A stretch of 64,000 nucleotides of DNA from Sphingobium amiense. Its GTDB lineage: Bacteria; Pseudomonadota; Alphaproteobacteria; Sphingomonadales; Sphingomonadaceae. Shown piece by piece: positions 45,036-64,000 of the stretch. The notes beneath the pieces were generated by a model. That model did not search any database and was not told the origin of the DNA. It was given only the letters and a program-made list of their open reading frames with translations. Location of the stretch: assembly GCF_003967075.1 (NCBI RefSeq), contig NZ_AP018664.1, positions 62,001 to 126,000 on the forward strand, given 5' to 3'. The translations under genes were made by a program, and so were the position numbers. Position 1 is the stretch's first letter; every line of letters begins with the position of its first letter.

Positions 45036-45114
45036 AGTGTGGGAGGGATGTGGGAGTAAGTTGGCTTACTCCCACACTGCGCCCCTCCCAAGGTGGGCTT
45101 GAAAGTGTGGGAGG
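45036..45114. repeat. Iterated GTGTGGGAG motifs before the integrase
   Basis: Direct copies AGTGTGGGAGG at 45,036-45,046 and 45,104-45,114 flank a perfect inverted repeat TGTGGGAGTAAG-TTGG-CTTACTCCCACA (45,049-45,076). Four copies of the same core in 80 bp, between the tRNA attachment region and the integrase start, are what arm-type binding sites of a tyrosine integrase or its excisionase would look like. Confidence 0.6.
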
Positions 45115-45119
45115 AAGAA

Positions 45120-48172: not shown

Positions 48173-50322
48173 TTCCCATGTCCAACTCTTCCCTCGCCTT
48201 CGCATTCGATCCACCATCTCCGCCGCTCGTCGTGACGGCAGCCAAAGCAATGGCGTTGCAATTGGCGGCAGGCAGCGCGATTTCGCGTAGCGACATCAAC
48301 CGCATCATGACGGACCACTTCGGCGGAACCGATGCACTCGGGGCATGGTCAGTCCGTGATGCTCACGCTGCGCTCGAGCTGGCGCAGGTTCAACACCTGC
48401 AAGCATCAGATCAAATCCAGCTCTCGAGCCCGATTGACGAGGCCGAACAGTTCTTCTGCGGTCTCGATGCCCGGGTTCCGACCCAGACCAATCGCAGCGA
48501 CGAGCAGATCGAATGGCAGCAGTTTGCAACGCCGCCGCGCCTTGCCTGGCTTGCTGCCCGGGCTTGCGCGCTGGCCACTGGCGAGCTTGTGCTGGAACCC
48601 TCGGCCGGAACGGGCATGCTCGCGGTCTGGGCCGCCAAGGCCGGCTCGCGCCTTGCCCTCAACGAAATCTCGCCGCTGCGCCGCGACTGCCTGAGCGCCT
48701 TGTTCCTTGCGGCCCGAGTGACCGGCCATGACGCTGAGCTGATCGAAGAACTGCTCGATCCACCCATCATCCCGAGCGTCGTATTGATGAACCCTCCCTA
48801 TTCCCACGGCATTGAGCGAGGGCACGATAGTCGCACTGGCTTGCGCCATCTGCGGTCGGCCTGGAACCGTCTGGTGTCCGGGGGGCGGCTTGTCGCGATC
48901 ATGCCTGAATGGTTCGACTGTGCGAAGTTCTTGGCGGGGCTGAAGGGACCGATCTCGCTGCTGCTCAATGCCGCCGTCGAACGCGCGTTCGTCAGGCAGG
49001 GCACCGGCATAACCACGCGGCTGCTGGTTCTCGATAAAGCGGCAAGCTCCGACGAGCCTGTCGCGATCCGCACAAACGACTTTCGCCAGCTGACCGAACT
49101 TGTCGATGCTATCCCAACTCGCGCCAGCCTGGAGGCTGTTCCCGAGCAATCGCGCCTCCCGCTTCGTGCGCCGTTCCGCCTGGTGGCCGCGCCGCGCAGG
49201 CCGCTGCCGACGCCAGCAAGGATCACGCCCACAGCCTTCGCGATCAGGTCGCTCACCTACCAGTCGCTTGAAACCCCTGCGCTGCTTGCCCCTCAGGTTG
49301 GCCACTATCTGCCCTATCGCCCGAGCAGGATTGTGATCGATGGCGCGGCCGAGCATCCGACGCCGCTCGTCGAGTCTGTTGCCATGGGGTCGATCGCCGC
49401 ACCGATGCCCGAAGCGGTGCCGCAGCTGCCCAACGGTCTGGTTCCCAACGGGCTGCTGTCGGCTGCCCAGGCAGAGACCCTGATCTACGCTGCCAGCGCT
49501 CATGCTCGCGATTTGACCGGCCGGTTCGAGCCCGAGGACAAGGGTTGTTCGCTCAAGGCCTCGGCGGAAGGTCAGGTGTACCGGCAGGGCTATTTCCTCG
49601 GGGACGGCACCGGCGCTGGTAAAGGACGCCAGGTCGCGAGCGTCATTCTCGATCGCTGGGTGCGCGGCGAGCGCCGCCATATCTGGATTTCGAAGAACGA
49701 GCCGCTGCTAGAAGACGCTCGCCGCGACTGGGCCGCCCTTGGCGGCCTCCCGATCGACATCCAGCCGCTGGCATCCTGGAAGCTCGGCATGCCCATCGCC
49801 ATGCGCGACGGTATCCTCTTCGTCACCTATCCGACCCTGCGTTCGGGCCGAAGCGACGCAACGCGGCTGGACCAGATCCTCGCCTGGGCCGGCGACGACT
49901 TCGACGGCGTGATCGTGTTCGACGAAGCGCACGCCATGGCCAATGCAGCCGGCGGCGAAGGATCGCGCGGCAAGGTTAAAGGATCGGAGCAGGGCATTGC
50001 CGGGGTGCGCCTGCAGAACCTCCTGCCCCGGGCAAGGGTGCTCTACGCATCGGCAACCGGCGCGTCCGACGTCAACAACTTGGCCTATGCGACGCGCCTT
50101 GGGCTCTGGGGTCCGGAAACCGCCTTCGCCAATCGCGAGGCCTTCGTCGCCGATATTCGTGATGGTGGAATCGCCGCGATGGAGCTGGTAGCGCGGGATC
50201 TCAAGTCGCTCGGCCTCTACACGGCCCGGGCCCTTTCGTTCGCCGGTGTCGAGTATGAAATCCTCGAGCATTGCCTGACCGAGGATCAGATCGCGGTCTA
50301 CGATGCCTATGCTGAGGCCTGG

Positions 50323-50354
50323 GCGATCTTATGCGCAGCTGCGCATAAGATCGC
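50323..50354. repeat. Junction palindrome at the left end of RIT-1
   Basis: GCGATC, then the 20-bp perfect palindrome TTATGCGCAGCTGCGCATAA (50,329-50,348), then GATCGC: 32 bp perfectly symmetrical. GCGATC is the last host hexamer (codons GCG ATC). The palindrome is not part of the host gene and lies outside the terminal inverted repeat. Its half-site TTATGCGCAG recurs with one change (TAATGCGCAG) inside the terminal repeat. Confidence 0.9.
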
Positions 50355-50390
50355 TTATCGCGAGGTAGCGATAATGCGCAGGAGCGCGGC
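50355..50390 (+). repeat. RIT-1 terminal inverted repeat, left
   Basis: Begins TTATCGCGAGGTAGCGATAA and ends GGAGCGCGGC; 35 of 36 bases match the reverse complement of 54,119-54,154. It contains the internal dyad TATCGCGA-GG-TAGCGATA (perfect in the right copy) and the TAATGCGCAG half-site. Confidence 0.92.
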
Positions 50391-50484
50391 ATAGTCGCTG
50401 AATTCCTGCACTGTCGTGCGATCTTGCTGCACATTATTTTGATTGCGAACCTCGGTGGTCTCTGGACCAGCTGAGGAAACAATC

Positions 50485-51717
50485 ATGTTGCAGACGCACG
50501 ACGAATTGATCGCCGAACTCTCGAATTTGCTCACGGCGCAGAATTATAACCCGGTGGTTGTGGCGAACCATCGACTCTACGCGCGCGCATTTCTCGATTA
50601 TCTGGCCGAGTGCGACATGCAGGTCGAGACTGTGACGCCTCAGCAGGTCGACCAGTATTTTTGCTATGCAATCCAGGATTTTCAGGCCCAGTATGGCCGA
50701 GTTCCCTGTCCGCGGTGGCACATGTTGCCCCGCACGTCAATCAACAAGCTCCTCCGGCTTGCTCAAGGCAAATGGCCGCCCGAGCCGGAGATAATCGAAC
50801 CGGAAACTGTGTACCGGCAGGCGATCTGCTGCGAATACGAGGCATGGCTGCGCGACGAGCGCGGTCTGGCAAGCGCTACCATCGCGGCGCTTATGTGGGA
50901 GGCACGGAACTTCCTGCGATGGCAGTTCGAACGGAGCGGTGCTGCCAGCCTCGACACGTTGAGCATCGTGGAAGTCGATCTCTACATGGACATGCGCGCG
51001 CCTGGATTAAGGCGCAAATCATTGGCCGATGTCGCTGAGCGGCTCCGGTCGGTGGTGCGCTATCTGCATCGGACGGGACGCATCCCGACTGATCTCACGC
51101 CGCACATCATCGGCCCCATGCTTTACGCCTATGAAGATGTGCCCTCGACGTTGGACAAGAGCCAAATCGCCGCGGTGTTGGCGACGACGAAGAAGGACGG
51201 ATCGCCGCGAGGAATGCGCGATTTTGCGGTACTTCAACTGCTTGCCACATATGGGTTGCGCGAAGGTGAGATATGCCGCCTTCGGCTTGAAGACGTGAAC
51301 TGGCGCGGAGAATCCCTGCGTATCCGTCACACCAAGACCAATGCGTACTCCTACATGCCGCTATTGGCGCCGGTTGGTGAGGCGCTGCTCGACTATCTGC
51401 GTCATGGGCGCCCCCAGGTCGAGGGGCGGGAAATCTTCATCCGATCCTGCGCGCCCTACATCGCAATGACAAACCTGTACGGCATGATCCGCGGGCGGTT
51501 AGCAGCCGCAGGCGTCGAGCCGCCGGGAAAGCGAGGAGCGCATGTCTTCCGCCACGCGCGAGCGGTCGAACTACTGCGGGCGTCGGTCCCGCAAAAGATC
51601 ATCGGCGACGTGCTCGGGCATCGATCAATCGAATCCACCAATGCCTATCTCAAGCTGGCGACAGATGATCTCCGAGCCGTGGCGCTCGAGGTACCCGGCT
51701 CGGAGATGCTGTCATGA
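50485..51717 (+). CDS. RIT-1 tyrosine recombinase, first of trio
   Basis: A 410-aa phage-integrase-family protein. An N-terminal core-binding domain (about 15-110), then the catalytic domain with box I Arg in TYGLREGEICRLRLED (near 256), HVFRHARAVELL (near 352), GHRSIESTNAYLKL with nucleophile Tyr near 387. ATG at 50,485 with GAGGA at 8 nt; a frame extension to 50,443 is less likely. Its stop overlaps the next start by 4 bp. In RIT elements the three proteins are all required-looking, but each one's role is not established. Confidence 0.9.
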   Translation: MLQTHDELIAELSNLLTAQNYNPVVVANHRLYARAFLDYLAECDMQVETVTPQQVDQYFCYAIQDFQAQYGRVPCPRWHMLPRTSINKLLRLAQGKWPPEPEIIEPETVYRQAICCEYEAWLRDERGLASATIAALMWEARNFLRWQFERSGAASLDTLSIVEVDLYMDMRAPGLRRKSLADVAERLRSVVRYLHRTGRIPTDLTPHIIGPMLYAYEDVPSTLDKSQIAAVLATTKKDGSPRGMRDFAVLQLLATYGLREGEICRLRLEDVNWRGESLRIRHTKTNAYSYMPLLAPVGEALLDYLRHGRPQVEGREIFIRSCAPYIAMTNLYGMIRGRLAAAGVEPPGKRGAHVFRHARAVELLRASVPQKIIGDVLGHRSIESTNAYLKLATDDLRAVALEVPGSEMLS

Positions 51718-53069
51718 GCGCCTGGCACGATCCCGATTGCACCGTTGTTGACGCCTTCCTGGAAAAATCGCAGTTCCGGCCGGGAAGCAGACCGACTTAT
51801 CGCTGGTTCCTTCGCAGCTTCGAGGATGTAGCCCGACGTCATCCCGCGGTTGACCGGCAGATGCTCGACGTCTGGCTGAAGGAAATGGAAAAACGTTGGC
51901 GAATGCCGACGCTGCTCAACCAGGTCTGCATTGTCGATCGCTTCCTCGAACACCTCGTCGAAATCGGGCTGATCGCCGAGAATCCCGTTGCTGTGCTTCG
52001 TCGTCAGTACAACGCCAAACAAAACAAGCCGATCTGGCGGGCTCTCGCTTCCCCCAATCCCGACGAAGCCCTGGCCGCATTGCGACGGCCCGCGCCCTAC
52101 GGCAGCGTGCTGGGGGACTTCATGCGCGAGCATGTCGCGTTGATGCGCAGCCGGGGCTATCAGTATGAGACCCAGGCTCACTGGCTATTGCGGTTCGATC
52201 GGTTCCTCCAGGCGAACCCCGAACTTGCCGGGGCATCGCTTGAGACAATGCTGGCGCGCTGGGCAACTGCCAAGCCGACCCGCAATCACGCGGCTGAATG
52301 TCAGAAGCTGGGGCGCATCCTGACCAAGGCGCGGTATCGCCTTGATCCCAGAATCCCGCCAAAACGCTTCAACGCCCGGCCAGAGCGGGAAGTGGCGCGC
52401 GAGCATCGACGGCCGCATATCTTCAGTCCGGCCGACGTCCGGCGGTTGCTCGATGTTGCCCGCTCGTATCCGTCGCCGGATGCTCCGCTGCGGCCTATGG
52501 TCCTCTACACGATGGTGGTTCTGGCCTATTGTGCCGGACTGCGCCGTAGTGAACTCGCCGGGCTTGATCTGGGTGACGTGGACCTTCAATCGGACACGAT
52601 CACGATCCGGGAAACGAAGTTCTACAAGACCAGGATCTTGCCGCTAACCGGCAGCGTCATGGCCGAATTACGGGCCTATATCGATGCAAGGCGGCGCGCC
52701 GGCGCCCCGCAGGATCCGCGGTCCGGGCTCTTCTGGCACGAGCACTTCAATGATCGCTATACCCCCGTGACGGTCTCAACGATGATTACCAACGTCATGC
52801 GCCGCGCCGGGTTCAAGCCCCCGACGGGGCGGGCGGGACCACGCGTTCATGACCTGCGCCACTCGATGGTCGTGAACCGAATCCTTCAATGGTATCGATC
52901 CGGCGTCAATCCGCAGGACAAACTGCGCTTTCTCTCCACCTATATGGGGCACCGGGACATCAACTCCACGCTGGTCTACATCACTGTCACGCAGGACCTG
53001 CTGCATGAGGCAAGCGAGCGGTTCCGTACCGTTGGCGTCCGATGCCTCACAATGGAGGCGCGGCCATGA
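51714..53069 (+). CDS. RIT-1 tyrosine recombinase, second of trio
   Basis: A 451-aa recombinase, longest of the three, with an extra helical N-terminal region (RWFLRSFEDVARRHPAVDRQMLDVW) before a SAM-like domain. Catalytic Arg is in YCAGLRRSELAGLDLGD (near 275), HDLRHSMVVNRI near 378 and Tyr in STLVYITVT near 421. Starts at the ATGA overlapping the first gene and ends in another ATGA with the third. Arrangement implies fixed stoichiometry by translational coupling. Confidence 0.9.
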   Translation: MSAWHDPDCTVVDAFLEKSQFRPGSRPTYRWFLRSFEDVARRHPAVDRQMLDVWLKEMEKRWRMPTLLNQVCIVDRFLEHLVEIGLIAENPVAVLRRQYNAKQNKPIWRALASPNPDEALAALRRPAPYGSVLGDFMREHVALMRSRGYQYETQAHWLLRFDRFLQANPELAGASLETMLARWATAKPTRNHAAECQKLGRILTKARYRLDPRIPPKRFNARPEREVAREHRRPHIFSPADVRRLLDVARSYPSPDAPLRPMVLYTMVVLAYCAGLRRSELAGLDLGDVDLQSDTITIRETKFYKTRILPLTGSVMAELRAYIDARRRAGAPQDPRSGLFWHEHFNDRYTPVTVSTMITNVMRRAGFKPPTGRAGPRVHDLRHSMVVNRILQWYRSGVNPQDKLRFLSTYMGHRDINSTLVYITVTQDLLHEASERFRTVGVRCLTMEARP

Positions 53070-54070
53070 CGAAGAGCAATCCGTTCCCCGCGTTGTTGCG
53101 GGCGTTCTTCCAGGAATGGTTGGCCGAGCAACGCAGTGCTTCGGTTCATACGATCCGGTCTTACCGCGACACCTGGCGATTGTTGCTTCGGTTTATCGCG
53201 GAGCGAAAAGGCGGCGGGGTTGCGCGGATCACGCTGGCCGATGTCTCGGCCGGCGAGGTGCGCGCGTTCCTCCATCATACCGAGCATGGGCGCAAAAGCA
53301 CAATCGGCACGCGAAACTGCCGGCTCGCAGCGATCCGCAGCTTCTTCAGCTACGTGGCGGACAAGGATCCCGAATACATTGCGCAATGCGCCGAGGTCCT
53401 GACCGTCCCGCTGAAGCGGGAGCCCACCGCTGCACCCTGCTATCTCGAGACGGGGGAGGTCGAGGCGATCCTTGCTCAGCCCGACCGATCGACAATCGAG
53501 GGGATGCGCGACCATGTGTTGCTCTCGTTCCTCTACAACAGCGGCGCGCGCATCCAGGAAGCTCTCGACCTCTGTACCGACGCGATCCGGTTCGACGCAC
53601 CGAACTTCGTGCGTCTTTACGGCAAGGGGCGCAAGGAACGCATCTGTCCGCTCTGGCCAGAAACAGTGACGTTGCTCCGGAAGTTGTTGGAACGCCAACC
53701 ACGTGGGGCAGAAGAGCGAATCTTCGTGAATCGATACGGTGAGCCCCTGGGCGCCTCCGGGGTGCGGTTCAAGTTGGCCGCCTATGTTGAGGAAGCCGCC
53801 AAATCCATGCCGACGCTTCGGTCCAAACATGTGACGCCGCACAGCTTCCGGCATGCCACCGCCGTTCACCTTGTCGCTGCCGGGGTCGACATCACCGTCA
53901 TCCGCAGTTGGCTTGGACACGTCAGCCTCGATACGACCAACCACTACGCACAGGCCAATCTGGAGACCAAACGAAAGGCGCTTGAACAGGTAGGCGCGCC
54001 GGCGGCGAGCAACGTCCCACCATCGTGGAAACGCGATGCCAGCCTGATGGAATGGCTCGACACCCTGTGA
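53066..54070 (+). CDS. RIT-1 tyrosine recombinase, third of trio
   Basis: A 334-aa XerC/D-like recombinase: N-terminal SAM-like domain (FFQEWLAEQRSASVHTIRSYRDTW), catalytic Arg in YNSGARIQEALDL (near 160), HSFRHATAVHLV (near 262), GHVSLDTTNHYAQA with Tyr near 293. It serves as the intact model for the truncated third recombinase of RIT-2. Ends 48 bp before the right terminal repeat. Confidence 0.92.
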   Translation: MTKSNPFPALLRAFFQEWLAEQRSASVHTIRSYRDTWRLLLRFIAERKGGGVARITLADVSAGEVRAFLHHTEHGRKSTIGTRNCRLAAIRSFFSYVADKDPEYIAQCAEVLTVPLKREPTAAPCYLETGEVEAILAQPDRSTIEGMRDHVLLSFLYNSGARIQEALDLCTDAIRFDAPNFVRLYGKGRKERICPLWPETVTLLRKLLERQPRGAEERIFVNRYGEPLGASGVRFKLAAYVEEAAKSMPTLRSKHVTPHSFRHATAVHLVAAGVDITVIRSWLGHVSLDTTNHYAQANLETKRKALEQVGAPAASNVPPSWKRDASLMEWLDTL

Positions 54071-54118
54071 AATAATGCGAAGGACGTGGCGAAGTGTGCC
54101 GCCGCTTTGCGGGGCCGC

Positions 54119-54154
54119 GCCGCGCTCCTGCGCATTATCGCGACCTCGCGATAA
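54119..54154 (-). repeat. RIT-1 terminal inverted repeat, right
   Basis: Reverse complement of 50,355-50,390 with a single difference (CGAGGTCGCG against CGAGGTAGCG). The change makes the TATCGCGA-GG-TCGCGATA dyad perfect here. Followed directly by GCGATC and host codons ATC CAC GCC. Confidence 0.92.
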
Positions 54155-54160
54155 GCGATC

Positions 54161-54478
54161 ATCCACGCCAACCTGCGCGATGCGCTGGAAGCCACGCGGA
54201 TCGTCGACGGCGAGACCGGGGGCACGCTCAACTCCGGTGCCAAGTCCGCAGCGCTGTCGATCTTCGAGGGAACCAAGCAGCGCTTCTTCGCGCAGCTGCT
54301 TTTATCGATGAAGCTCCCCAGCTTGCTGCCCGCGATCGATACGGCGATCGCCGATGGGCATGCCGTTGTCGTGCAACTCGTCTCAACGGCAGAGGCCATG
54401 CTCGACCGGCGACTTGCCGACCTGTCTGACGAGGAACGCGAAGCTCTCGAGATCGATCTGTCCCCGCGAGAAGCGATC
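54161..54478 (+). pseudogene. Strawberry-notch gene, middle fragment (106 codons)
   Basis: Open in frame from ATC CAC GCC (IHANLRDALEATRIVDGETG) through GTLNSGAKSAALSIFEGTKQRFFAQLLLSM-type helicase sequence to SPREAI, where GCG ATC is followed by TAA contributed by the RIT-2 junction palindrome. It continues the protein at 50,328 and is itself continued at 61,308 (DYLTKSFP). No start codon or ribosome site of its own, so it is presumably not expressed. Confidence 0.9.
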
Positions 54479-54498
54479 TAATGTTGAGCTCAACATTA
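54479..54498. repeat. Junction palindrome at the left end of RIT-2
   Basis: TAATGTTGAGCTCAACATTA, a 20-bp perfect palindrome directly after the host hexamer GCGATC (54,473-54,478) and directly before the 91-bp terminal repeat. It has the same layout as the RIT-1 palindrome: T[AT]ATG, three variable bases, AGCT, three complementary bases, CAT[AT]A. Confidence 0.9.
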
Positions 54499-54589
54499 CA
54501 CATATTCTTTGCAGTCGCAGTTTATGTCGAGCGTGGCGGCGGGAGGCGCAGGTTTTCTTCGGTTTTCCAGGATTTCACTCCAGATAATT
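54499..54589 (+). repeat. RIT-2 terminal inverted repeat, left
   Basis: Starts CACATATTCTTTGCAGTCGC and ends CTCCAGATAATT. 88 of 91 positions match the reverse complement of 61,214-61,304. Contains TTATGTCGAG, a half-site resembling half of the adjoining palindrome (TAATGTTGAG). Confidence 0.92.
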
Positions 54590-54729
54590 GCCTGAAAAGG
54601 TTGAATGCTGGGGCCGTTAGGATTGTCGGCACCGCTGGAATGGTGCAGGTTGTAGAAAATCCCCGAGGCAGTCGTTCGTCGCTTTCAATCGAGGTCCCGA
54701 TGCAAGGCTGTCCGCCATGGAGATCTGCC

Positions 54730-55779
54730 ATGCCGAACAAACTGCCCAAGCGCCCCATTATCGTTTTTCTCGCAGGGATTTTTCTGGGCTTGCCCGGCGT
54801 CGCAGGCGCAGTGACATTGACGTCATTAAAAGGCATGGATCTCGAAGGAAGCTATGGCTCGTATGCGCCGCGTGGCGATTGCTCTCGAGGGGCGAGCCTT
54901 GAGATCAACGAAACCGGCTTTACTTTCAAAGCGTCTGGTCAGACTGTAAAAAGCACCCGGTTTGAGTACGCGGCTTCGTTTCTTGGCCCGACCTATGAAG
55001 GCGTTAGCGCGGTCTTTTTTCCTTTTCCTGTCAATGCCAACGATTTCGGACGCGTGATCTTGACGGTCAATGACGACGAAAAGCGAGGCGTAGTCCGCCT
55101 TGAAGCAGACGTCGCGCCTGGACAGCGCCTGGATCCGTTCAAGTCAGCGCTCGTGTCGCAATCCCCACTGCTCTTGTGCAAGGGGTCTGGGCCGGCATCT
55201 GCTGCTTCAAAAGCACCTCTGCAAGCAAGGCCAGTCTTGGGAAAACCGACGCCGCTAGCCTGGACCAATCTTGCGAGTTCCATAGGAAAATTCCAAAGTG
55301 ATTCCGATCCCAACGGAATAGATCTTTTGACAAGTGGTCCGATAGCTGACGCGATACGTTCGCGTTTGGGCCGCAAAATAGACCTGCTGGCCAGCAATCT
55401 TTCGGCGATATCCGGTCTCCAACGACAAGGATCTCTCTATTGGGTTACGGGAAATGCGCCGCATCAAGGCGGTGTAGAGCAAGCCTATGTTTTGCTTGAT
55501 GCAAATCGCCGTGCTGTTCAAATTGGCCTTTGGGAAAAGGGAAAGTTGACGGTCTATGCGCCTCAAGGAGGCCGCTTGCCCGTGCCCCAGGACATTGCTC
55601 GCCTGCTTATGGACAGCCCACCTGAGGACGCAGTGCCGCTGCCTGGGACTGCTTGGGAGGTCGTGCCGGTCCAAGGTCGCGCCCCAATGGCCTATGTCGA
55701 TGTAGCTGCTTCGCCAAACATCAAGTCGTTTAGCCTGTTTTGTGAAGGCAACCGCCCCATGATGGCCATGCTCTGTTGA
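54730..55779 (+). CDS. Exported protein of unknown function (RIT-2 passenger), C-terminus fused to IS end
   Basis: A 349-aa protein with a signal peptide (RPIIVFLAGIFLGLPGVAGA). The mature N-terminus LEGSYGSYAPRGDCSRGASLEI, a beta-rich segment and a second part (WTNLASSIGKF, IRSRLGRKIDLL, YWVTGNAPHQGG) follow; no family recognised. Codon use is visibly more A/T-rich than in the neighbours. ATG at 54,730 with GGAG at 7 nt. The last two codons (TGT TGA) belong to the IS21 end, so the native C-terminus may be lost. It appears to be cargo, not a transposition gene. Confidence 0.7.
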   Translation: MPNKLPKRPIIVFLAGIFLGLPGVAGAVTLTSLKGMDLEGSYGSYAPRGDCSRGASLEINETGFTFKASGQTVKSTRFEYAASFLGPTYEGVSAVFFPFPVNANDFGRVILTVNDDEKRGVVRLEADVAPGQRLDPFKSALVSQSPLLLCKGSGPASAASKAPLQARPVLGKPTPLAWTNLASSIGKFQSDSDPNGIDLLTSGPIADAIRSRLGRKIDLLASNLSAISGLQRQGSLYWVTGNAPHQGGVEQAYVLLDANRRAVQIGLWEKGKLTVYAPQGGRLPVPQDIARLLMDSPPEDAVPLPGTAWEVVPVQGRAPMAYVDVAASPNIKSFSLFCEGNRPMMAMLC

Positions 55780-55867
55780 TTTCCACTGAGAGTTGACCCG
55801 GGATTTTCATCGAGAAGTGACCCGGTTGGAAGGTATGTCCCGCTATGCGGGTGGTGGGTCAAGCGGG

Positions 55868-56638
55868 TTATTTTTCCTTTCGTGATTTGGGGTCCGCGGC
55901 GCTGGCCCTGAACCGAAAGCTGTCATTGCCGGTCTCGAGGATGTGACAGTGGTGGGTGAGCCGGTCCAGCAGAGCCGTTGTCATCTTGGCATCACCGAAC
56001 ACGCCAGCCCATTCGCTGAAGCTGAGGTTGGTGGTGATGACGACGCTGGTGCGCTCGTAAAGCTTGCTCAGCAGGTGGAACAGCAGCGCGCCGCCTGACG
56101 GGCTGAACGGCAAGTATCCGAGCTCGTCGAGGATGACGAGGTCGAGGCGCAGGAGCCGTTCGGACAGTTGGCCTGCCTTGTTCATGGCCTTTTCCTGTTC
56201 CAGCGCGTTGACCAGGTCGACGGTGGCGAAGAAGCGGACCTTCTTGCGGTGATGCTCGACCGCCTGGACGCCAAGTGCGGTGGCGACGTGCGTCTTGCCG
56301 GTGCCGGGGCCACCGATCAGGACGACGTTATGGGCGCCATCGATAAACTCGCCGCGATGCAACTGGCGGACCATGGCTTCGTTGACCTCGCTGGAAGCGA
56401 AGTCGAAGCCGGCCAGGTCCTTGTAGGCCGGGAACCGGGCCGCCTTGATCTGGTAGGCGATGGACCGAACCTCGCGCTCGGCCATCTCGGCCTTGAGCAA
56501 CTGGGAGAGGATGGGGATGGCCGCATCGAAGGCGGGTGCCCCCTGCTCGATGAGGTCAGCGACGGCCTGGGCCATGCCGTACATCTTGAGGGAGCGCAGC
56601 ATGACCATGACGGCGGCGCTGGCGGGATCATGACGCAT
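55868..56638 (-). CDS. istB: IS21 helper ATPase
   Basis: A 256-aa AAA+ ATPase that assembles on target DNA and activates IstA. Walker A GGPGTGKT (109-116), Walker [12 protein letters not shown], sensor region [27 protein letters not shown]. Start at 56,638 ([18 protein letters not shown]) lies within the istA end, the usual coupled arrangement. Length normal and the gene intact. Confidence 0.95.
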
Positions 56639-58154
56639 GACGCAGATCCTTCCCGCGCAGCGTATCATAGCGCGCGACATTGGCCTTCGGCTCCCGGCGC
56701 AGGCTCAACGCCTGTGGGGTATCGATGGCGGCGATGCTGGTTGGCTTGCCGTCGAGCAGCCGGTGGAGGATGTTGAGGATATGGGTCTTGGTCGGCACGC
56801 CAGCTTCCAGCGCCAGTTCGACGGAACAGAGCACCGCCTGCTCATCATGTTGCAGGACCAGCGCGAGGATCTCCACCATCTCCCGGTCACCGCCGGGGCG
56901 CTTGAGCAGGAAGCCCTGCAACTGCCGGAAGGCCTCGGGCATCTCGGCAAAGGGCGCGCCGTTGCGCAGGGCGCCAGGCTTGCGCTGGATCACCGCCAGG
57001 TAATGCCGCCAGTCATAGATGGTCCGCCCTGGCTGGTCATGGGACCGCTCGATGATCCGGCCATGCTCGCACAGGACCTGGCCCTCGGCGGCGATGACGA
57101 GCCGGTCAGGGTAGACCCGCAGGCTCACCGGCCGGTTGGCGAAAGAGGCTGGCACGCTGTAGCGATTGCGCTCGAAGGAGACCAGGCAGGTCGGCGATAC
57201 CCGCTTGGTGTGCTCGACGAAGCCATCGAAGGGCCGGCCCAGCGGCATCAGACTGGCGACCTCTTCGGCATGCACATCGGCGATGGTGCCGGGCAGGACG
57301 CCATGCTGGATCTGACCCCATTGCGCGATGCACTGCTCCTCGAGCCAGACGTTGAGCGCATCGATGTCGGGGAAGCTGGGCATGGGTTGCCACAGCCGGC
57401 GCCGTGCATCCTGCACGTTCTTCTCGACCTGTCCCTTCTCCCAACCGGAAGCCGGGTTACAGAACTCGGGCTCGAACAGGTAATGACTGGCCATCGCGGC
57501 AAAGCGCGCGTTGACCTGCCGAGCCTTGCCCGTGCCGATCCGATCAACCGCGGTCTTCATGTTGTCGAAAATCCCGCGCTGCGGCACGCCGCCCAGCACC
57601 CGGAAGGCCTGGGTCAGAGCGTCGAACAGCATCTCGTGAGTCTGGAGCAGATAAGCTCGGACGGTGAAGGCGCGGCTGTGTGACAGCTTGGTGTGCGCCA
57701 CCTGCAGCTTGGTCTGCTTGCCGCCCAGCAAGGCCCAGTCCTCGCTCCAGTCGAACTGGAACGCCTCGCCCGGCGCAAAGACCAGCGGCACGAACGTGCC
57801 GCGACCACTGGTCTGCTGCTCGCGCTGACGATCGGCCTTCCAGGTCCGCACGAAGGCCGCAACGCGCCCGTATGAGCCGTTATAGCCCAGGACCACGAGA
57901 TCGGCGTGCATCTGCTTCGCCGTGCGCCGCTGCTTGCGCGACTTGCCAGCCTCGATCCGCAGCCAGCCTGACAGCTTCTCCGCATACGGGTCCAGCTTGC
58001 TCGGCCGCTCGGGAACCTTGAACTGCGGCTCTACCGTGTCCGCCCGCAGGTACTTGCGGATCGTGTTGCGCGACAAACCAGTGCGCCGCTCGATCTCCCG
58101 GATCGGAACCTGCTGCCGGAAATGCCAGCGCCGGATTACACTCAATAACGCCAT
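56628..58154 (-). CDS. istA: IS21 transposase
   Basis: A 508-aa DDE transposase. N-terminal HTH ([23 protein letters not shown]), RNase H-like core with Asp in [12 protein letters not shown], second Asp in IFDNMKTAV and Glu in [12 protein letters not shown], then a beta-barrel and C-terminal helical part. ATG at 58,154 ([15 protein letters not shown]). Overlaps istB by 11 bp. Intact, so the IS may still be mobile. Confidence 0.95.
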
Positions 58155-58250
58155 GTCGATCACTCCTGAATCCTCCGACCAATCAGCCAGAGGGAAGTCA
58201 AAACATGGGTCACTTCTCAGTGGAAACTTATGCCCCTCCCGGGTCAACTC

Positions 58251-58724
58251 TCAGTGGAAATCAACAGCCAGATGCAGCATCGCGCGATCGCGGGTGCCAA
58301 GGCGTGTCCGGGGATCCGGGGCATCGAGCAAAGCCTTGATCTCGGCCCGGTCGAGGTAGTCGATCAGCGCCTTGTCGGTCTTCTTGGTCGGGATCGATCT
58401 GACGCGGAGGGCCAGATCCAGGCAGGCCGGAATCCGATACTCGATGTACCGGAAGAAGGACCGGATCGCGGCGAGCCTGCCATTGCGGGTCCGCACACAG
58501 CTGCCGCGCCCGGTCTCGACATGGTCCAGGAAAGCCATGATCATGTCGGGGCCGAGATCCTCGATCTCAAGATCGGTCGGCCGACGCTTCAGCCGATCGG
58601 CAGCGAACTGAACGAGGAGGACGAAGCAGTTGGCATAAGTCTTCACTGTGTGCGGGCTGACAGCACGTTCGCGTGGCAGATGCTCACGCAGGTATGCCGA
58701 GAGATGCGGAGCGAGCGCCGTCAT
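58251..58724 (-). pseudogene. RIT-2 tyrosine recombinase, third of trio, truncated by IS21
   Basis: 157 codons read: an N-terminal SAM-like domain (SAYLREHLPRERAVSPHTVKTYANC) and the start of the catalytic domain up to RDRAMLHLA; VDFH and the stop come from the IS end. The Arg, His-x-x-Arg and Tyr boxes, about the last 180 residues by comparison with the RIT-1 protein, are missing. It starts in an ATGA overlap with the second gene. Non-functional as a recombinase. Confidence 0.92.
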
Positions 58725-59635
58725 GCCGCCTCTCCCCGGTAAAGCTGCTCGCTCGCAGCCGCAATGTCGCGCAGCAGCACCGGAGTGGCCTCGAGATACC
58801 AGTACGTGTTGGCGACCGACGCGTGCCCCAGATAGACACTGAGACCGGCCATGTGGTGAGCGATGGCCTCCCTGTCAGGTGGGCAGGACTCAAGGGAACG
58901 GACAGCGAAGGTGTGCCGCAGATCGTGGAGTCGCATGCCCGCCGTACCGGTTGGTCCACGATATCCGAGCTGCCGGGCCAATCTGACGAACACGACGTGG
59001 GCGCGCACCTTGTGCGGTGCCCGTCCCCGGATAGTGACGAACAGGTCGTTGCCCCTGGCCGCGTGCTTCTCGCGGAGGGCGAGATAGGCTTCGAGTGCTT
59101 GGCGCGTCGATGGCTGCAAGGCAATCAGCCGCTGCTTGCCAAACTTGCCGTTGCGGACGATCAGGCCATCCTCGACCAGATCTTTGCATTGTAATGCGAG
59201 GGCCTCGGAAATCCGGAGACCTGTCGCCGCCAGCAGCCCGAACAGGTAATGGTACGTGTGTGGGCTGATCGTGCCTTGGGGTGGAACGTCCAATGCAGCA
59301 GTCATGATCGCCCGCACCTGGTCCGGCTCAATGATGGTCGGCGTCGGGCGTGGCCGCTTGCCCCGACCGAAGACGCCGGCAGGCGGAACTTCGTGGCCTG
59401 AATCTTCGGCGTGAGCGAAAAGGCTGAAGTTACGTGCGGTGTCGAACCTCCGGCGGGCCACATATTGTGAGCTCGACGTATGGCACCAGTCGTAGATGCG
59501 CTGGACCTGAGTGTGCCGATCGCCGAAACCCCCGGCGTAGGCGGCGTACAGGCGCAGCATGCGTTCCTGTTCAGAGAACTTCAGCCCGAGGCTGCGATGC
59601 AGCGCCACGTATCTGGAAATGTGGATGTTCAGCAT
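58721..59635 (-). CDS. RIT-2 tyrosine recombinase, second of trio
   Basis: A 304-aa recombinase. Short core-binding region (LHRSLGLKFSEQERMLRLYAAYAG), catalytic Arg in AATGLRISEALALQ (near 137), HDLRHTFAVRSL (near 233), LGHASVANTYWYLE with Tyr near 277. It overlaps the first gene by 7 bp and the third by 4 bp. Much shorter than its RIT-1 counterpart (451 aa), so the two elements belong to different lineages. Confidence 0.9.
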   Translation of the reverse strand: MLNIHISRYVALHRSLGLKFSEQERMLRLYAAYAGGFGDRHTQVQRIYDWCHTSSSQYVARRRFDTARNFSLFAHAEDSGHEVPPAGVFGRGKRPRPTPTIIEPDQVRAIMTAALDVPPQGTISPHTYHYLFGLLAATGLRISEALALQCKDLVEDGLIVRNGKFGKQRLIALQPSTRQALEAYLALREKHAARGNDLFVTIRGRAPHKVRAHVVFVRLARQLGYRGPTGTAGMRLHDLRHTFAVRSLESCPPDREAIAHHMAGLSVYLGHASVANTYWYLEATPVLLRDIAAASEQLYRGEAA

Positions 59636-61176
59636 GACTGTTCTCCCGGCCAGGGCTGCGCGATCTTCATGAGCATCGGCAGATCGACCTTGGCGTAGAT
59701 GGCAGTGGTCTCGGGCGAGCTGTGACGCAGGATGGTCCCGACGGACTCCAGGCCTGCGCCCGCGCGCAGCAGGTTGGTGGCAAGCGAATGCCGGAATATG
59801 TGCGACCCGGTCGGCACTCCTTCGATCCCACCGCGGTCGCGCGTACGAGCGACGATGCCCGCTATCTCAGCGGACGAGCGGAATGGCCGAAACGGTGCTT
59901 GTGCACGCAGGAACAGATGCTCTTCGGCGGCCTTCGGGCGGGCTGCCGCAAGATATGCCAGGATCGCGTCGCCAACATCCTGCGGCAATGGCAGGCGGTC
60001 CGGTCGACGCGTCTTGCCCTTGACCGTCAGGTGGCCGGATCGCCAGTCGATGTCGTCGAGACGCATGTTCTGAATATCGGCAGCCCGCAGGCCGAGCCTG
60101 GCGAGCAGGAGAATGATGGCCTTGTCCCGGACTTCCACCGGACGATCTGTCGGACAGGCCGCAATGATCCTCTCGATCGTTGCCGGGTCGACGTGGCGCG
60201 GCAGCGTCGAAAGGCGGTAGCGCTGTACTGATGGAACTGCATGCAACAATGCCGGCCGGCACTCGCCACGCACGACCAGAAACCGGATGTAGCTCCTCAT
60301 TATCGTGACGAGCAGCGATGCCGACCCCGGCGTCTCCTTGCTTCGTCGTTGGAATGCGCTCCTGAGTCCGGCGGCATCCCATTGCGCAGGCTCGCCCAGC
60401 ATTGGCATGAGCCGTCTGATATCAGTCCGGTAGCGCCGGATCGTCTCGTCCGTGGCGCCGCGGTGTTGCTTGAGCCATGCCAAGTAAGCCGACATGTGCG
60501 GGTCATCGTCCGCCACCGGTTCAACCAATGGGATGGCGCCCCGGCCTCGCAGGAACTCGACGAAGTGCCGTGCGCATCGCCGCCGCCGCTTGGTGCCCGT
60601 TGCGACCAACTTGCCCCGCTTGCGCCAGACCGGGCATCGGCAATCATGCGCTGCATAGTGGTCGATGATCGTGTCATCGATATCGATCCATTGGCGCCGC
60701 GCCATGCGAAGCCAGGCCACGAAATGCTCGGCCTCGGACCGATAGGCCTGTGCCGGTCCCTCGGCAAGTTGCAGGCGATCGATCGCATCGGAATAGTCGG
60801 CGAGGTGCCGTGGCAGATCGTCGATCCCGTCGTCGACTTCGACGTAGCCTTGATCTTCCAGGAACCGGACGAAGCGCCTGACCCTTGCTGCTTGGTCAGC
60901 CTTGTAGTGCGCTTGCTGCGCCGAATACCGGTGGCACCGGCACCCATGCTTTTCGAACCGCCGGACAGCCCGATCGTCAATCGTGCGGATGGCGATCCTA
61001 TGCAGGCCCAGCCAATGCAGGAAATGGCGGACCGCCGCGCCATACAGAACCGCACAGCCTGACTTCTCGTCGAGCGACTGAGAGGAGAGGAATGTGGTGA
61101 GAAGGGTGCCGTGACTGGGCGGGTCTTCGACCCGGAGCGGGGCCGCTCGAAACGGCAATGATGATCTTGATCGCAT
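59629..61176 (-). CDS. RIT-2 tyrosine recombinase, first of trio
   Basis: A 515-aa recombinase with a long N-terminal region that includes two Cys/His clusters (KHGCRCHRYS and AAHDCRCPVWRKRG), which may bind zinc. The catalytic domain has Arg in LARLGLRAADIQNMR (near 359), HIFRHSLATNLL (near 457) and RHSSPETTAIYAKV with Tyr near 491; the usual GH is RH. ATG at 61,176; its AAGGA ribosome site lies in the stem of a hairpin (61,180-61,211). Confidence 0.9.
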   Translation of the reverse strand: MRSRSSLPFRAAPLRVEDPPSHGTLLTTFLSSQSLDEKSGCAVLYGAAVRHFLHWLGLHRIAIRTIDDRAVRRFEKHGCRCHRYSAQQAHYKADQAARVRRFVRFLEDQGYVEVDDGIDDLPRHLADYSDAIDRLQLAEGPAQAYRSEAEHFVAWLRMARRQWIDIDDTIIDHYAAHDCRCPVWRKRGKLVATGTKRRRRCARHFVEFLRGRGAIPLVEPVADDDPHMSAYLAWLKQHRGATDETIRRYRTDIRRLMPMLGEPAQWDAAGLRSAFQRRSKETPGSASLLVTIMRSYIRFLVVRGECRPALLHAVPSVQRYRLSTLPRHVDPATIERIIAACPTDRPVEVRDKAIILLLARLGLRAADIQNMRLDDIDWRSGHLTVKGKTRRPDRLPLPQDVGDAILAYLAAARPKAAEEHLFLRAQAPFRPFRSSAEIAGIVARTRDRGGIEGVPTGSHIFRHSLATNLLRAGAGLESVGTILRHSSPETTAIYAKVDLPMLMKIAQPWPGEQSC

Positions 61177-61179
61177 GTT

Positions 61180-61211
61180 GGTTCCTTCGACTTGTTGAGG
61201 TCGAGGGAACC
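61180..61211 (-). promoter_or_regulatory. Hairpin covering the ribosome site of the first RIT-2 recombinase
   Basis: GGTTCC-TTCGAC and its near-complement GTCGA-GGGAACC with an 8-nt loop. On the minus strand the 3' arm contains AAGGAACC, the ribosome site 6 nt before the ATG at 61,176. It may keep recombinase translation low, or be an operator. Confidence 0.5.
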
Positions 61212-61213
61212 GT

Positions 61214-61304
61214 AATTATCTGGAGTGAAATCATGGAAAACCGAAGGAAACCTGCGCCTCCCGCCACCACGCTCGACATAAACTGCGACTGCAAAGAATA
61301 TGTG
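61214..61304 (-). repeat. RIT-2 terminal inverted repeat, right
   Basis: Reverse complement of 54,499-54,589 except for three positions. Its outer end GAATATGTG abuts ATC GAC TAC of the host gene. No 20-bp palindrome is present on this side. Confidence 0.92.
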
Positions 61305-61307
61305 ATC

Positions 61308-63113
61308 GACTACCTCACCAAAAGCTTCCCGGTGCGGCTGATGGCTGTTTTCACCGACGAGAACGGCAATCCGCGTTCCGAGCCGATGAACGACGAGAAC
61401 GGTGCACCGGTGCTGTGCCGCTCGGCGCTCGCCGCGCGCGACCGGATGATCGAGCAGCTCTGCGCCTTGCCGCCGATCGCTACCGCGCTCGACGCGATCA
61501 TCGAGCGGTTCGGGGGCGACCAGGTCGCCGAGGTTACCGGGCGTACCCGCCGCCTGATCGTCGGGCGCGACGGGCGTCAGCAACTCCAGTCACGCAGCCC
61601 CCGCGCCAATGTCGCCGAGACCCAAGCGTTCATGGACGGAATCAAGCAGGTCCTGGTCTTCTCCGATGCCGGCGGCACCGGACGCAGCTACCACGCCGAC
61701 CTCGCCGCGAAGAACCAGGCTCGGCGGGTTCATTTCCTGCTCGAGCCGGGCTGGCGGGCCGATGCCGCGATCCAGGGGCTCGGCCGGACCAACCGCACCA
61801 ATCAGGCCTCGGCGCCGCTGTTCCGTCCCGTCACCACCGATGTGCGGGGCGAACGCCGGTTTATCTCGACCATCGCCCGGCGGCTCGACAGCCTCGGTGC
61901 GCTCACCCGCGGCCAGCGCCAGACCGGTGGACAGAACCTGTTCGATCCCGCCGACAATCTCGAAAGCGCCTATGCCAAGGAAGCGCTCCACCGCTGGTTC
62001 GGCCTGCTGTTCATCGGCAAGCTCGAAGCCGTGACCCTCGCGCGGTTCGAGGAACTGACCGGACTCAGGATCGAAGGCTCCGACGGCTCGATGGTCGATG
62101 ATCTCCCTTCGATCCAGCGCTGGCTCAACCGCATCCTCGCGCTACCGATCGGCTTGCAGAATGGCATTTTCGATGAGTTCCTCGGCCTCGTCGAAGCACG
62201 GATCGATGCCGCGCGGCAGGCGGGTACGCTCGATCTCGGGGTCGAGACCATCGCAGTCGAGCATTTCGATATGCTCTCCGACACGCTGTTGCGCACCGAT
62301 GCGCTTTCGGGTGCGACGACGCACCTCCTCGAACTTGAGATCGCCCGCGCGCTGAAGCCGTTGCGCCTTGAACGGCTTGAGGAGCTTTACGGCTTTTCGG
62401 GCGAGCGCCAGCAGTTTCTGCGCAATGCCCGTTCAGGCCGGATCGGGCTGCTTGTCCCGGCGCGCAGCCTGCTCGCTGATGACGGAACCCGGGTTGCCCG
62501 CTTCGAACTGGTCCGGCCCTTGAAACATGGCCATCTCACCGCCGAGCAGCTTGAGGAGAGCAACTGGGAGCCGGTCGATCCCGCCGAGTTCCACCGCCTC
62601 TGGCAGGTAGAGGTCGACGAGGCGGCCGCGAGCCACAAGCGCGAACGCCTGCATCTCGCGACCGGCCTGCTGCTGCCGGTGTGGGACAAGCTCCCGTCCG
62701 ATTATGTTCGGGTGAGCCGGATTTCGGCGCGCGACGGGCGCTCGCTGCTCGGCCGCGAGGTGCCGCTCCACTGCGTTCCCGAACTCTGCCAGGCGCTTGG
62801 TCTTGAGAACGAACACGCGTTCTCGGCCGAGCAGATCGTCGATACCGTGCTCGCGGCAGGACGGCCGATGCAGGTCAAGGGCCGCGAGGCGCTCACGCTC
62901 AAGCGCAGCCTGGTCAACGGGGCGCAGCGACTCGAGCTCGCCGGTTGGTCTGCGGCGCGGCTCGACTGGTACAAGGCGCAAGGGTGCTTTACCGAGATCA
63001 TCCGCTATCAGACGCGGTTGTTCGTGCCGACGGCAAGTGCCGCTGTGGTTCTGGCTCGGCTTGCCGGGCGAACGAAGCAAGTATTGCCAAATGACAGCAT
63101 ATATACCATATAG
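61308..63113 (+). pseudogene. Strawberry-notch gene, C-terminal fragment (601 codons)
   Basis: Continues from GCG ATC (54,478): DYLTKSFPVRLMAVFTDENGNPRSEPMNDENG. The second RecA-like lobe has VLVFSDAGGTGRSYHADL, RRVHFLLEPGWRADAAIQGLGRTNRTNQA (arginine-finger region), characteristic of SNO C-terminal helicase proteins, followed by a long alpha-helical tail ending NDSIYTI. An in-frame ATG at 61,233 lies inside the RIT-2 repeat and could permit expression of a separate C-terminal protein, but no ribosome site is seen. Confidence 0.9.
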
Positions 63114-63123
63114 TGCCATATGG
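63106..63123. promoter_or_regulatory. Repeated CCATAT motif, candidate toxin-antitoxin operator
   Basis: CCATATAGTGCCATATGG: two CCATAT copies 10 bp apart, the second forming the palindrome CCATATGG, in a locally A/T-rich stretch that overlaps the end of the strawberry-notch gene and ends 9 bp before the antitoxin ATG. One-turn spacing suits an antitoxin dimer array. Confidence 0.45.
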
Positions 63124-63132
63124 AGATTTGAT

Positions 63133-63546
63133 ATGTTGGCTTTGCAACCCGTTGATACCGTGCCCCAGGCGTTCCGGCCCGATCCTGTCACCCAGGAGGA
63201 GGCGGCCGCGATGTTCCGCGCGGTACTGAACCTGTTCGGAAAATGGGACCTCACCGATGAGCAAGCCGCGACTTTGCTCGATATGCCGGTGCGTTCCTAT
63301 CGGCGCTGGAAGGCCGAAGGGCCGGGCCGAGTCTCACGCGACGGCGCGGCGCGGCTCTCGAACCTGATGGGGATTCACAAAGCGCTGCGGATCATCTTTT
63401 CCGAAGCCCAGCGAGGCTTCGCTTGGATCAAGGCCGACAATGCGGCCTTCGCCGGATCGAGCGCGCTCGACGTCATGCTTGGCGGTGAACTTACCGACAT
63501 CATGCGTGTGCGCCGCTATCTCGATGCGACACGCGGTGGCTGGTGA
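63133..63546 (+). CDS. Antitoxin of the MbcA/ParS/Xre (DUF2384) family
   Basis: A 137-aa protein with an N-terminal Xre-like HTH region (LNLFGKWDLTDEQAATLLDMPVRSYRRWK) and the C-terminal toxin-binding domain (LSNLMGIHKALRIIFSE, GSSALDVMLGGELTDIMRVRRYLDATRGGW). It neutralises the adjacent RES toxin and usually represses the operon. ATG at 63,133 with GGAG at 7 nt. Its stop overlaps the toxin's GTG start (GTGA). Confidence 0.92.
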   Translation: MLALQPVDTVPQAFRPDPVTQEEAAAMFRAVLNLFGKWDLTDEQAATLLDMPVRSYRRWKAEGPGRVSRDGAARLSNLMGIHKALRIIFSEAQRGFAWIKADNAAFAGSSALDVMLGGELTDIMRVRRYLDATRGGW

Positions 63547-64000
63547 CCGACGCCGATATTCCCGTCAGCCATGTTGAGTGGAAGGGCGCGGTCAGAATCA
63601 TCCGCAGCGCCTTTCCGCCGATCGACCTGTTCGAGGATCTCGCCGACCCTGCCGACTGGCCCCTGCTGATTTCGGCCGAGCAGAAGACCAATCCCCGGAT
63701 CATGGCGACGATCGGCAATCTCGATCTTGTGCCGGTCGAACGCCGGGTTGGTGGAAACGGCGCATCCTATCTGATGGCGCCGTTTACGCATGTCAGCACG
63801 GACCGGCCAAGCCGCTTCACCGATGGCAGCTACGGCGTCCTTTATGTGGGACGGGTCTTCGAGACGGCGCTGTTCGAAACGATCCATCACCATGCCCGAT
63901 TCATGGCCCGGACGGCTGAAGCGCCCGGTTGGACTTCGCAGTTTCGCGAGATCGTCCTGTCGGTGGGCGCCGATCTTCACGATCTCAGGGGTGGCGATGC
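63543..64000 (+). CDS. RES-domain NAD+-degrading toxin (3' end outside window)
   Basis: At least 152 residues from a GTG at 63,543: VRIIRSAFPPIDLFEDL, then RFTDGSYGVLYVGRVFETALFETIHHH, which carries the RES family Arg, Tyr and Glu positions. RES toxins are ADP-ribosyltransferase-fold enzymes that hydrolyse NAD+ and stop growth until the partner antitoxin binds. The Ser-containing C-terminal motif is beyond the window edge. Translationally coupled to the antitoxin. Such pairs often stabilise islands and plasmids. Confidence 0.88.
   Translation, partial: MTDADIPVSHVEWKGAVRIIRSAFPPIDLFEDLADPADWPLLISAEQKTNPRIMATIGNLDLVPVERRVGGNGASYLMAPFTHVSTDRPSRFTDGSYGVLYVGRVFETALFETIHHHARFMARTAEAPGWTSQFREIVLSVGADLHDLRGGD

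What the first reader, a model, noticed from the sequence alone, without database searches (positions are those of the whole stretch)
48178..63113. One strawberry-notch gene split into three in-frame pieces by two different recombinase-in-trio elements
Fragments 48,178-50,328, 54,161-54,478 and 61,308-63,113 join without loss or gain of codons (717 + 106 + 601) into one methyltransferase-helicase. The junctions read EAWAI|IHANL and SPREAI|DYLTK. Each break is a RIT element flanked by short host repeats (GCGATC for RIT-1, ATC for RIT-2), so exact excision would recreate the gene. RIT elements are known, but two unrelated ones 318 bp apart in one gene suggest either a strong target preference or a reversible gene-interruption system on the island.
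Basis: partly seen in the sequence, partly recalled or inferred. Interest (0 to 1): 0.87.

Follow-up and report, generated by a model that had tools for sequence, protein, structure and literature searches.

The report
Jumping elements homing into one gene
Two kinds of three-recombinase jumping element each favour their own fixed spot inside the same plasmid-type gene and keep a six-letter trace of earlier landing sites, so the gene lies cut in many bacteria and, in this one, is stitched together from two versions.

Summary
The split strawberry-notch (sno) gene is real, with one correction: the third piece starts at 61,305, not 61,308 (intact homologues have one more residue there). It is not a local accident. 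All five sno paralogues of this genome (N-terminal pieces of the other four 43-83% identical to the window's) carry the same RIT-1 (body 3,800 bp, 0 mismatches) at the same codon; four carry RIT-2-type elements at the second site. Over all sources, 39 of 39 RIT-1-clade loci with a readable flank sit at site 1 and 16 of 23 RIT-2-lineage loci at site 2, in Sphingomonadales, Rhodobacterales and Rhizobiales; nine more distant RIT-1 relatives do not. Each insert is 6 bp - 20-bp palindrome - 6 bp - RIT - 6 bp. Near-identical empty sites show that the target hexamer stays on the 3' side (4 of 4 events), and one inheritance rule explains 8 of 13 near-identical copies. Site-2 RIT ends supply an in-frame start codon for the 3' piece (16 of 16). 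The window's gene is a chimera of two sno types that changes exactly at RIT-2. Strong target preference is supported; a reversible switch is not. Known element class; new target-dedicated variant with a testable mechanism.

The parts
48178..50328 (+). 5' piece of sno (methyltransferase-like region by eye, AAA_34 helicase lobe, 717 codons); last 6 bp (50323-50328, GCGATC) are spacer s1 of site 1
   Evidence: AAA_34 at 392-710
50329..50348 (+). 20-bp palindrome P of RIT-1, TTATGCGCAGCTGCGCATAA
   Evidence: found 11 times in 249 family genomes, only in the five genomes where RitA1 of 69% or more was found
50349..50354 (+). spacer s2 GATCGC (reverse complement of a sno hexamer)
50355..54154 (+). 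RIT-1 body, 3800 bp, with terminal inverted repeats; identical in five sno genes of this genome
50443..51717 (+). ritA of RIT-1 (424 aa)
51714..53069 (+). ritB of RIT-1 (451 aa)
53042..54070 (+). ritC of RIT-1 (342 aa)
54155..54160 (+). spacer s3 GCGATC of site 1
54161..54478 (+). middle piece of sno (106 codons); last 6 bp (54473-54478, GCGATC) are spacer s1 of site 2
54479..54498 (+). 20-bp palindrome P of RIT-2, TAATGTTGAGCTCAACATTA; its first codon is an in-frame TAA stop
54499..54504 (+). spacer s2 CACATA of site 2
54505..61298 (-). RIT-2 body (6794 bp here), opposite to sno
55774..58266 (.). approximate extent of the segment in RIT-2 that carries the IS21-type istA/istB genes; stands in place of about 809 bp of the L011 copy, with the 3' half of ritC missing
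58251..58724 (-). ritC fragment of RIT-2
58721..59635 (-). ritB of RIT-2 (304 aa)
59629..61176 (-). ritA of RIT-2 (515 aa)
61233..61298 (+). end of RIT-2 that encodes 22 codons from an ATG (MENRRKPAPPATTLDINCDCKE) in frame with the 3' sno piece, after a TCTGGAG Shine-Dalgarno-like stretch
61299..61304 (+). spacer s3 TATGTG of site 2 (codons YV)
61305..63113 (+). 3' piece of sno (starts with Ile; Helicase_C_4 begins 61 residues in)

Best explanation
Both inserts are RIT (recombinase-in-trio) elements of lineages that prefer fixed target sites in sno, a methylase-helicase type gene common on alphaproteobacterial plasmids. RIT-1 recognises the codons around A(W/F)xx|IH, RIT-2 those around SPRE(YV)|IDYL. 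Proposed reaction: the element closes into a ring RIT-[6 bp]-P-[6 bp]-RIT whose new hexamer is the donor's s3; the ring recombines across a 6-bp spacer with the target; the ring hexamer ends next to P on the 5' side, the target hexamer stays next to the 3' piece (s3). Opening the ring on either side of P gives either orientation, with P on the gene's 5' side. Shown from sequence: site specificity, anatomy, place of the target hexamer in 4 of 4 before/after events, pattern of the hexamers. Inferred: ring, RitABC chemistry, copying rather than cutting, and that recombination between RIT copies joined the two sno types in the window.
For: Five of five sno genes of the genome hold RIT-1 at one codon; a DNA search found no sixth full RIT-1 among the 40 of 106 candidates it scored, and the palindrome occurs five times in the genome, each at these genes; bodies 3800 bp with 0 mismatches. 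39 of 39 RIT-1-clade loci with a readable flank at site 1; 18 of 19 plasmid records by spacing. The 27 site-1 RitA rows put into the tree are one side of a branch, support 99/100. 16 of 23 RIT-2-lineage loci at site 2. Before/after: intact L168 and L160 are 99.7-100% identical to the host pieces of L012 and L014, and L127 99.95-100% to L012; target hexamer at s3 in 4 of 4 events. The rule explains 8 of 13 copies in four genome groups; shuffled hexamers reached this in 0 of 20,000 draws. The s2 hexamers tabulated for 25 RIT-1 copies (15 distinct) all reverse-complement into dipeptides seen at site 1, chance about 0.038 each; the list of allowed dipeptides came partly from the same copies. RIT-2 arm matches a sno of the DCKE type 20/27 in exact register, the best window of that gene.
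Against: RIT-2 is not exclusive: an identical RIT-2b copy sits between genes in this genome (L064), and six further lineage members examined are not in sno. Five of the 13 copies used to test the hexamer rule need a donor outside the genome, and if s2 and s3 are kept and s1 alone is redrawn, 1 of 20,000 draws reaches the observed value; the rival rule (ring takes donor s1) explains 7 of 13. No ring junction was seen. Window and L011 RIT-2 bodies differ by about 5%, so that fit is not a direct donor-recipient pair. The genome searches score a capped number of candidates per genome (5-7; 3), so copies may be missed; a class-wide draw of 385 genomes gave RitA2 only in the window's genome and one other, not read.
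Confidence: 0.85

Rival explanations
1. Reversible, regulated interruption: the RITs excise precisely and switch sno on and off.
For: Reading frames of the pieces are intact and hexamers on both sides encode sno-like residues, so clean excision would leave an open frame.
Against: Window sno is a two-type chimera; no ring in 179 loci (exact RIT-1 pattern); no lone palindrome among 11 in 249 genomes; near-identical copies within genomes fit copying. Intact frames can be explained by recency: host pieces of L012 and L014 are 99.7-100% identical to intact genes.
Confidence: 0.07
2. Domesticated split: RIT-2 turns sno into two working genes (stop in P, start in the element end), and the two-chain protein is the functional form.
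For: In-frame ATG in the RIT-2 end in 16 of 16 site-2 elements, behind a TCTGGAG stretch in the twelve with the Sphingomonadales type of end; in-frame TAA right after s1 in two of four RIT-2 copies tested.
Against: Both sites fall inside predicted helices of the helicase core; six of six Sphingomonadales RIT-1 copies tested have a stop right before the 3' piece; most sno genes listed are uninterrupted.
Confidence: 0.15
3. Spread by ordinary homologous recombination or gene conversion between sno paralogues, not by transposition.
For: Paralogues share a genome and the window gene is chimeric at site 2.
Against: The element is identical while the host genes around it are 43-83% identical; hexamers differ between insertions; orientation differs (L013).
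Confidence: 0.04
4. Chance clustering in a degenerate hotspot.
For: Islands and plasmids collect insertions; a group II intron-type RT and frameshifts hit other sno genes at other places.
Against: Codon-precise repetition in 39 of 39 loci across orders.
Confidence: 0.01

Closest known systems
RIT (recombinase in trio) elements of Cupriavidus, Bordetella and others (PMC2864759 passages; PMC3414803 section 11)
   Same: Three overlapping tyrosine recombinase genes ritA-ritB-ritC, about 3.5 kb, inverted repeats with a palindrome at the ends, insertions inside genes of mobile elements (radC, IS66 and Tn6049-like transposases).
   Different: Here two lineages each prefer one codon-precise site of one gene; hexamer inheritance worked out; element end codes for a start of the target gene. 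The texts read report 'sequence variation at the ends' without explanation, and RIT target specificity, empty site and movement as NT, not tested (PMC10214605 Table 1).
SE, strand-biased circularizing integrative elements (PMC10214605, passages)
   Same: 6-bp spacer, incoming and target hexamers kept on opposite sides, copy-out-like behaviour.
   Different: SEs have intA, tfp, intB, srap; no inner third hexamer or 20-bp palindrome is described in the passages read.
GInts (PMC5385486, passages) and Tn554 (as described in PMC10214605)
   Same: Several tyrosine recombinases, site specificity, 6-7 nt staggered exchange or 6-bp footprint.
   Different: A fourth gene (ginD), or tnpC in Tn554; other targets (six GInts in an ssb homologue; radC for Tn554 is recalled, from no call).
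Integron-like elements in rulB of pWW0 (PMC4542609, abstract and outline)
   Same: Elements with three recombinases that insert site-specifically in a plasmid gene.
   Different: tetR homologue as fourth gene, 3-bp repeat, different target.
DarB-like methylase-helicase dyad (PMC5512222, passages)
   Same: sno joins a methyltransferase-like region and a strawberry-notch helicase, on plasmids and islands.
   Different: This is the target, not the element; an antirestriction role is inferred from that paper.

Membership tests
RIT elements | three adjacent, same-strand, overlapping tyrosine recombinase genes | tested here: met
   RIT-1: 50443-54070, three genes with PF00589. RIT-2 in the window lacks half of ritC; the L011 copy has a longer ritC match
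RIT elements | H-x-x-R-H box of tyrosine recombinases | tested here: met
   HxxRH found in A1, B1, C1, A2, B2; the GH...Y pattern I used matched only C1
RIT elements | terminal inverted repeats | tested here: met
   42 bp (97.6%) in RIT-1, 91 bp (96.7%) in RIT-2
SE-like mechanism | 6-bp spacer with incoming and target hexamers on opposite sides | tested here: met
   target hexamer at s3 in 4 of 4 before/after events
SE | gene set intA, tfp, intB, srap | tested here: not met
   three recombinase genes fill the 3800-bp RIT-1
SE-like mechanism | circular intermediate without empty site | not testable with these tools
   no reads; no ring junction of the exact RIT-1 form in 179 loci
GInt | fourth gene ginD | tested here: not met
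   ritA-ritB-ritC fill RIT-1
DarB-like methylase-helicase (target gene) | adenine methyltransferase fused to SF2/SWI2-SNF2-type helicase | tested here: inconclusive
   AAA_34 and Helicase_C_4 found; no Pfam methyltransferase hit at the cutoff used; an NPPY motif is visible in the translation (motif recalled); annotators call relatives SAM-dependent methyltransferase/helicase

The most novel reading that the evidence does not exclude
RITs of these lineages are gene-homing elements that live on one antirestriction-type gene: they carry a piece of it in their own ends, convert it into a stop-start split pair, saturate its copies in a cell, and act as exchange points that shuffle its 5' and 3' halves between plasmids and islands.
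Probability: 0.35. Interest if true: 0.88.

Novelty: new variant of a known kind. Interest (0 to 1): 0.78.

Why it matters
How RIT elements move and whether they choose targets is listed as untested in the 2023 paper read here in passages (PMC10214605, Table 1). This locus and its relatives give a target, its exact edges, empty sites identical to within a few bases, and a rule that predicts the letters of new junctions. That turns an open question into a simple assay. It also shows a plasmid gene, matched in 508 of 72,556 plasmid records, used as a landing pad by two element lineages, with consequences for plasmid rearrangement, for the spread of cargo such as a TOTE conflict gene, and for gene calling (fragments annotated as separate proteins).

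Tried and rejected
Rejected: my first reading that the L012 ring gave the L013 RIT-2b (it stands in my notes). It assumed that the target hexamer goes to s1; the empty sites show that it stays at s3, which reverses the direction (L013 to L012). Rejected: strict exclusiveness of RIT-2 (L064). Rejected: that every sno fragment is a RIT split (L028, L034, L040 and L041 show other damage; L041 holds a reverse-transcriptase ORF of group II intron type). Considered: RIT-1 supplying a start codon; not so in six of six Sphingomonadales copies tested, open frame in seven of seven Rhodobacterales ones. Literature searches for RIT and for strawberry notch with recombinase, integrase, plasmid or Sphingobium found no report of this insertion in the library held; Ricker 2013 and Nielsen 2017 are cited by papers seen but I have read neither (Nielsen 2017 not held; Ricker 2013 not looked up). 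PADLOC and NCBIfam gave no useful name for intact sno.

L093 and L094 lie at the two ends of one scaffold and may be one insertion. One short-frame sno candidate (G159) was not fetched, and that call's match list was cut. Of 102 plasmid records with RitA1 I read 13 (L058-L061, L125, L132-L139), of 87 with RitA2 nine (L062, L063, L125-L131); the choice was mine, not random. CP005085 failed the spacing check; it has two places of each gene and only the best was listed.
Full report
What is there. The window holds a strawberry-notch gene (sno) in three open pieces. Pfam finds AAA_34 (lobe 1) in the first and Helicase_C_4 in the third; the middle 106 residues have no hit. Between the pieces lie two inserts with recombinase trios. 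Intact homologues fix the edges: in 20 of 20 empty sites fetched, site 1 reads A(W/F)xx|IH and site 2 has two codons (mostly YV) and one more residue before (D/E/S)YL; 20 of 28 intact cores have exactly the joined length, 778 residues, the rest 773-782. The third piece therefore starts at 61305.

The same split in every copy. The genome has five sno genes (all first-look candidates scored); all five N-terminal matches end at residue 717. All five hold RIT-1 there, 3800 bp with 0 mismatches, in either orientation, while the N-terminal pieces of the other four are 43-83% identical to the window's. A DNA search found no sixth full copy among the 40 of 106 candidates scored; the RIT-1 palindrome occurs five times in the genome, each in these genes. 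Four of five also hold a RIT-2-type element at the second site: one pair (window and L011) 94.5-98% identical, another pair (L012, L013) identical to each other over 3700 bp but 57-77% identical in protein to the first. L014 has RIT-1 alone.

Survey. In 249 genomes of the family, 92 have a match to the sno 3' piece (five candidates scored per genome) and most listed matches are uninterrupted. Of 18 regions fetched (13 short-frame candidates, five others), four show RIT-1 at site 1 (L030, L031, L032, L035) and five RIT-2 type at site 2 (L027, L029, L030, L033, L037); the rest are contig ends, other damage or nearly whole genes. A search by RitA1 instead of sno found ten copies of 69% or more in five of 249 genomes: nine in sno at site 1, the tenth on a contig without flank. 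A scan of genome contigs with RitA1 gave 34 loci. Over all sources, 39 of 39 RIT-1-clade loci with a readable flank are at site 1, in Sphingomonadales, Rhodobacterales, Mesorhizobium sediminum (three copies) and Martelella; the junction bases of L079 are N, and L093/L094 may be one insertion. RitA is identical in Mesorhizobium and several sphingomonads. Eight plasmid relatives with RitA 46-60% identical and one genomic relative are not in sno. For plasmid records listed in both searches, RitA1 and the middle sno piece have the spacing of a site-1 insert in 18 of 19; the nine RitA2 records have spacings that I read as site 2. RIT-2 lineage: 16 of 23 loci examined at site 2, including pCAR3, Dinoroseobacter shibae, Pukyongiella and Methylocystis. 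Sagittula MA-2 p5 repeats the window's double arrangement. One exception, Lichenicola (L126), seems to interrupt another methylase-helicase gene (ORFs; judged by eye). A class-wide draw of 385 genomes found RitA2 only in the window's genome and in one other, not read (three candidates scored per genome).

Anatomy and rule. Each junction reads host - s1 (6) - P (20-bp palindrome, in some copies imperfect) - s2 (6) - RIT - s3 (6) - host; P is on the 5' side of the gene even when the element is inverted. Near-identical intact genes give before and after: L168 has TCCATC and TATGTC where L012 has s3 TCCATC and TATGTC; L127, the same gene in Rhizorhabdus wittichii DC-6, is empty at site 1 and holds its own RIT-2b at site 2 with s3 TATGTC but other s1 and s2; L160 has GCTGTC where L014 has s3 GCTGTC. 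So the target hexamer stays at s3 in 4 of 4 events. The rule 'ring hexamer is donor s3; same orientation gives new s1 = donor s3 and unchanged s2; inverted gives new s1 = RC(donor s2), new s2 = RC(donor s3)' explains 8 of 13 copies in four groups of near-identical elements (bodies 99.95-100%), against a mean of 0.33 in shuffles, 0 of 20,000 as high; with only s1 redrawn 1 of 20,000 is as high; the rival rule (donor s1) explains 7. L011 to window RIT-2 also fits but the bodies are 5% apart.

Coding ends. In 16 of 16 site-2 elements the end that faces the 3' piece has an ATG in frame with it: 22 codons before s3 in ten and in L127 and L130, 20 in D. shibae, L129 and L125, 27 in L131 (in one search the distances include s3 and one codon). 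The encoded ...LDINCDCKE-YV continues into IDYL and resembles the native LDIAYDCKE-YV of one sno type (20 of 27 bases, best of all windows in that gene and exactly in register). pCAR3 has RIT-2 in just that type. P starts with an in-frame TAA in the window and pCAR3 copies, two of four tested. Six of six Sphingomonadales RIT-1 copies tested have a stop right before s3, seven of seven Rhodobacterales ones an open frame. A predicted model (21 sequences, mean pLDDT 77.7) puts both sites in helices of the helicase core, so a working two-chain protein cannot be assumed.

Chimera. Against two groups of intact sno genes, 288 sites separate the groups: window 5' piece 163 A / 8 B / 2 other, middle 13 A / 0 B, 3' piece 13 A / 80 B / 9 other. 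Identity to the A-type gene L156 is 100% in each 50-base step of the last 250 bases before site 2 and 84% in the step after. L012 and L014 are not chimeric; L011 shows no such break, L013 has no close relative in the set. RIT-RIT recombination is the likely cause; an older crossover at the same base cannot be excluded. N-RIT-N (L075, L092) and M-RIT-M (L102) arrangements in draft assemblies point the same way but may be misassembly.

Literature. RITs were described from Cupriavidus, with insertions in radC and transposase genes (PMC2864759, passages); PMC3414803 (passages; section 11) notes palindromes and 'sequence variation at the ends'. PMC10214605 (passages) lists RIT target specificity, empty site and movement as not tested and describes the 6-bp behaviour of SEs. 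GInts: PMC5385486 passages. PMC8138268 holds the RIT term only in its references. Methylase-helicase dyads: PMC5512222 passages.

Verdict. A known element class in a new, target-dedicated form, with a mechanism that can be tested. Not a demonstrated switch.

Noticed in passing
window 55868-58247: IS21-type istA/istB inside RIT-2, in place of about 809 bp including the 3' half of ritC; this copy could move only with RitC supplied in trans (inference).
   Followed up: partly
window 54481-55779: 432-aa ORF without Pfam hit in RIT-2, with a signal-peptide-like stretch by eye; possible cargo.
   Followed up: partly
L062:13370-15808: RIT-2 of Dinoroseobacter shibae pDSHI03 carries an AEP-TOTE primase plus helicase protein (TOTE conflict system) as cargo; a DEAD/DEAH gene of the same length lies beside RIT-2 in L125, L128 and L129 (domains not searched there).
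   Followed up: partly
L064 (G000:C1:24001-42000): Third identical RIT-2b copy lies between genes, next to a P-like stretch TTATCCTATCTATCATAAGG: an off-target landing.
   Followed up: partly
L126:6403-15353: RIT-2 relative in Lichenicola seems to split a different methylase-helicase gene near an ASGTPITN stretch.
   Followed up: partly
L041:13783-16018: sno of another genome is interrupted by a reverse-transcriptase ORF (group II intron type) at a different place.
   Followed up: partly
window 62797-63998: An Xre/ParS-type antitoxin (NCBIfam hit below cut-off) and a following ORF that looks like a RES toxin by eye lie directly downstream of sno.
   Followed up: partly
window 44831-45425: ARAGORN tmRNA call overlaps tRNA-Tyr and the start of an integrase-like ORF; probably false, the integrase suggests an island at tRNA-Tyr.
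   Followed up: no
L133, L136, L138, L139, L063: IS110-family transposases are annotated within the fetched flanks of RITs that are not in sno.
   Followed up: no
L075, L092, L102: RIT-1 flanked by the same sno part on both sides, in inverted order: rearrangement between RIT copies or misassembly.
   Followed up: no
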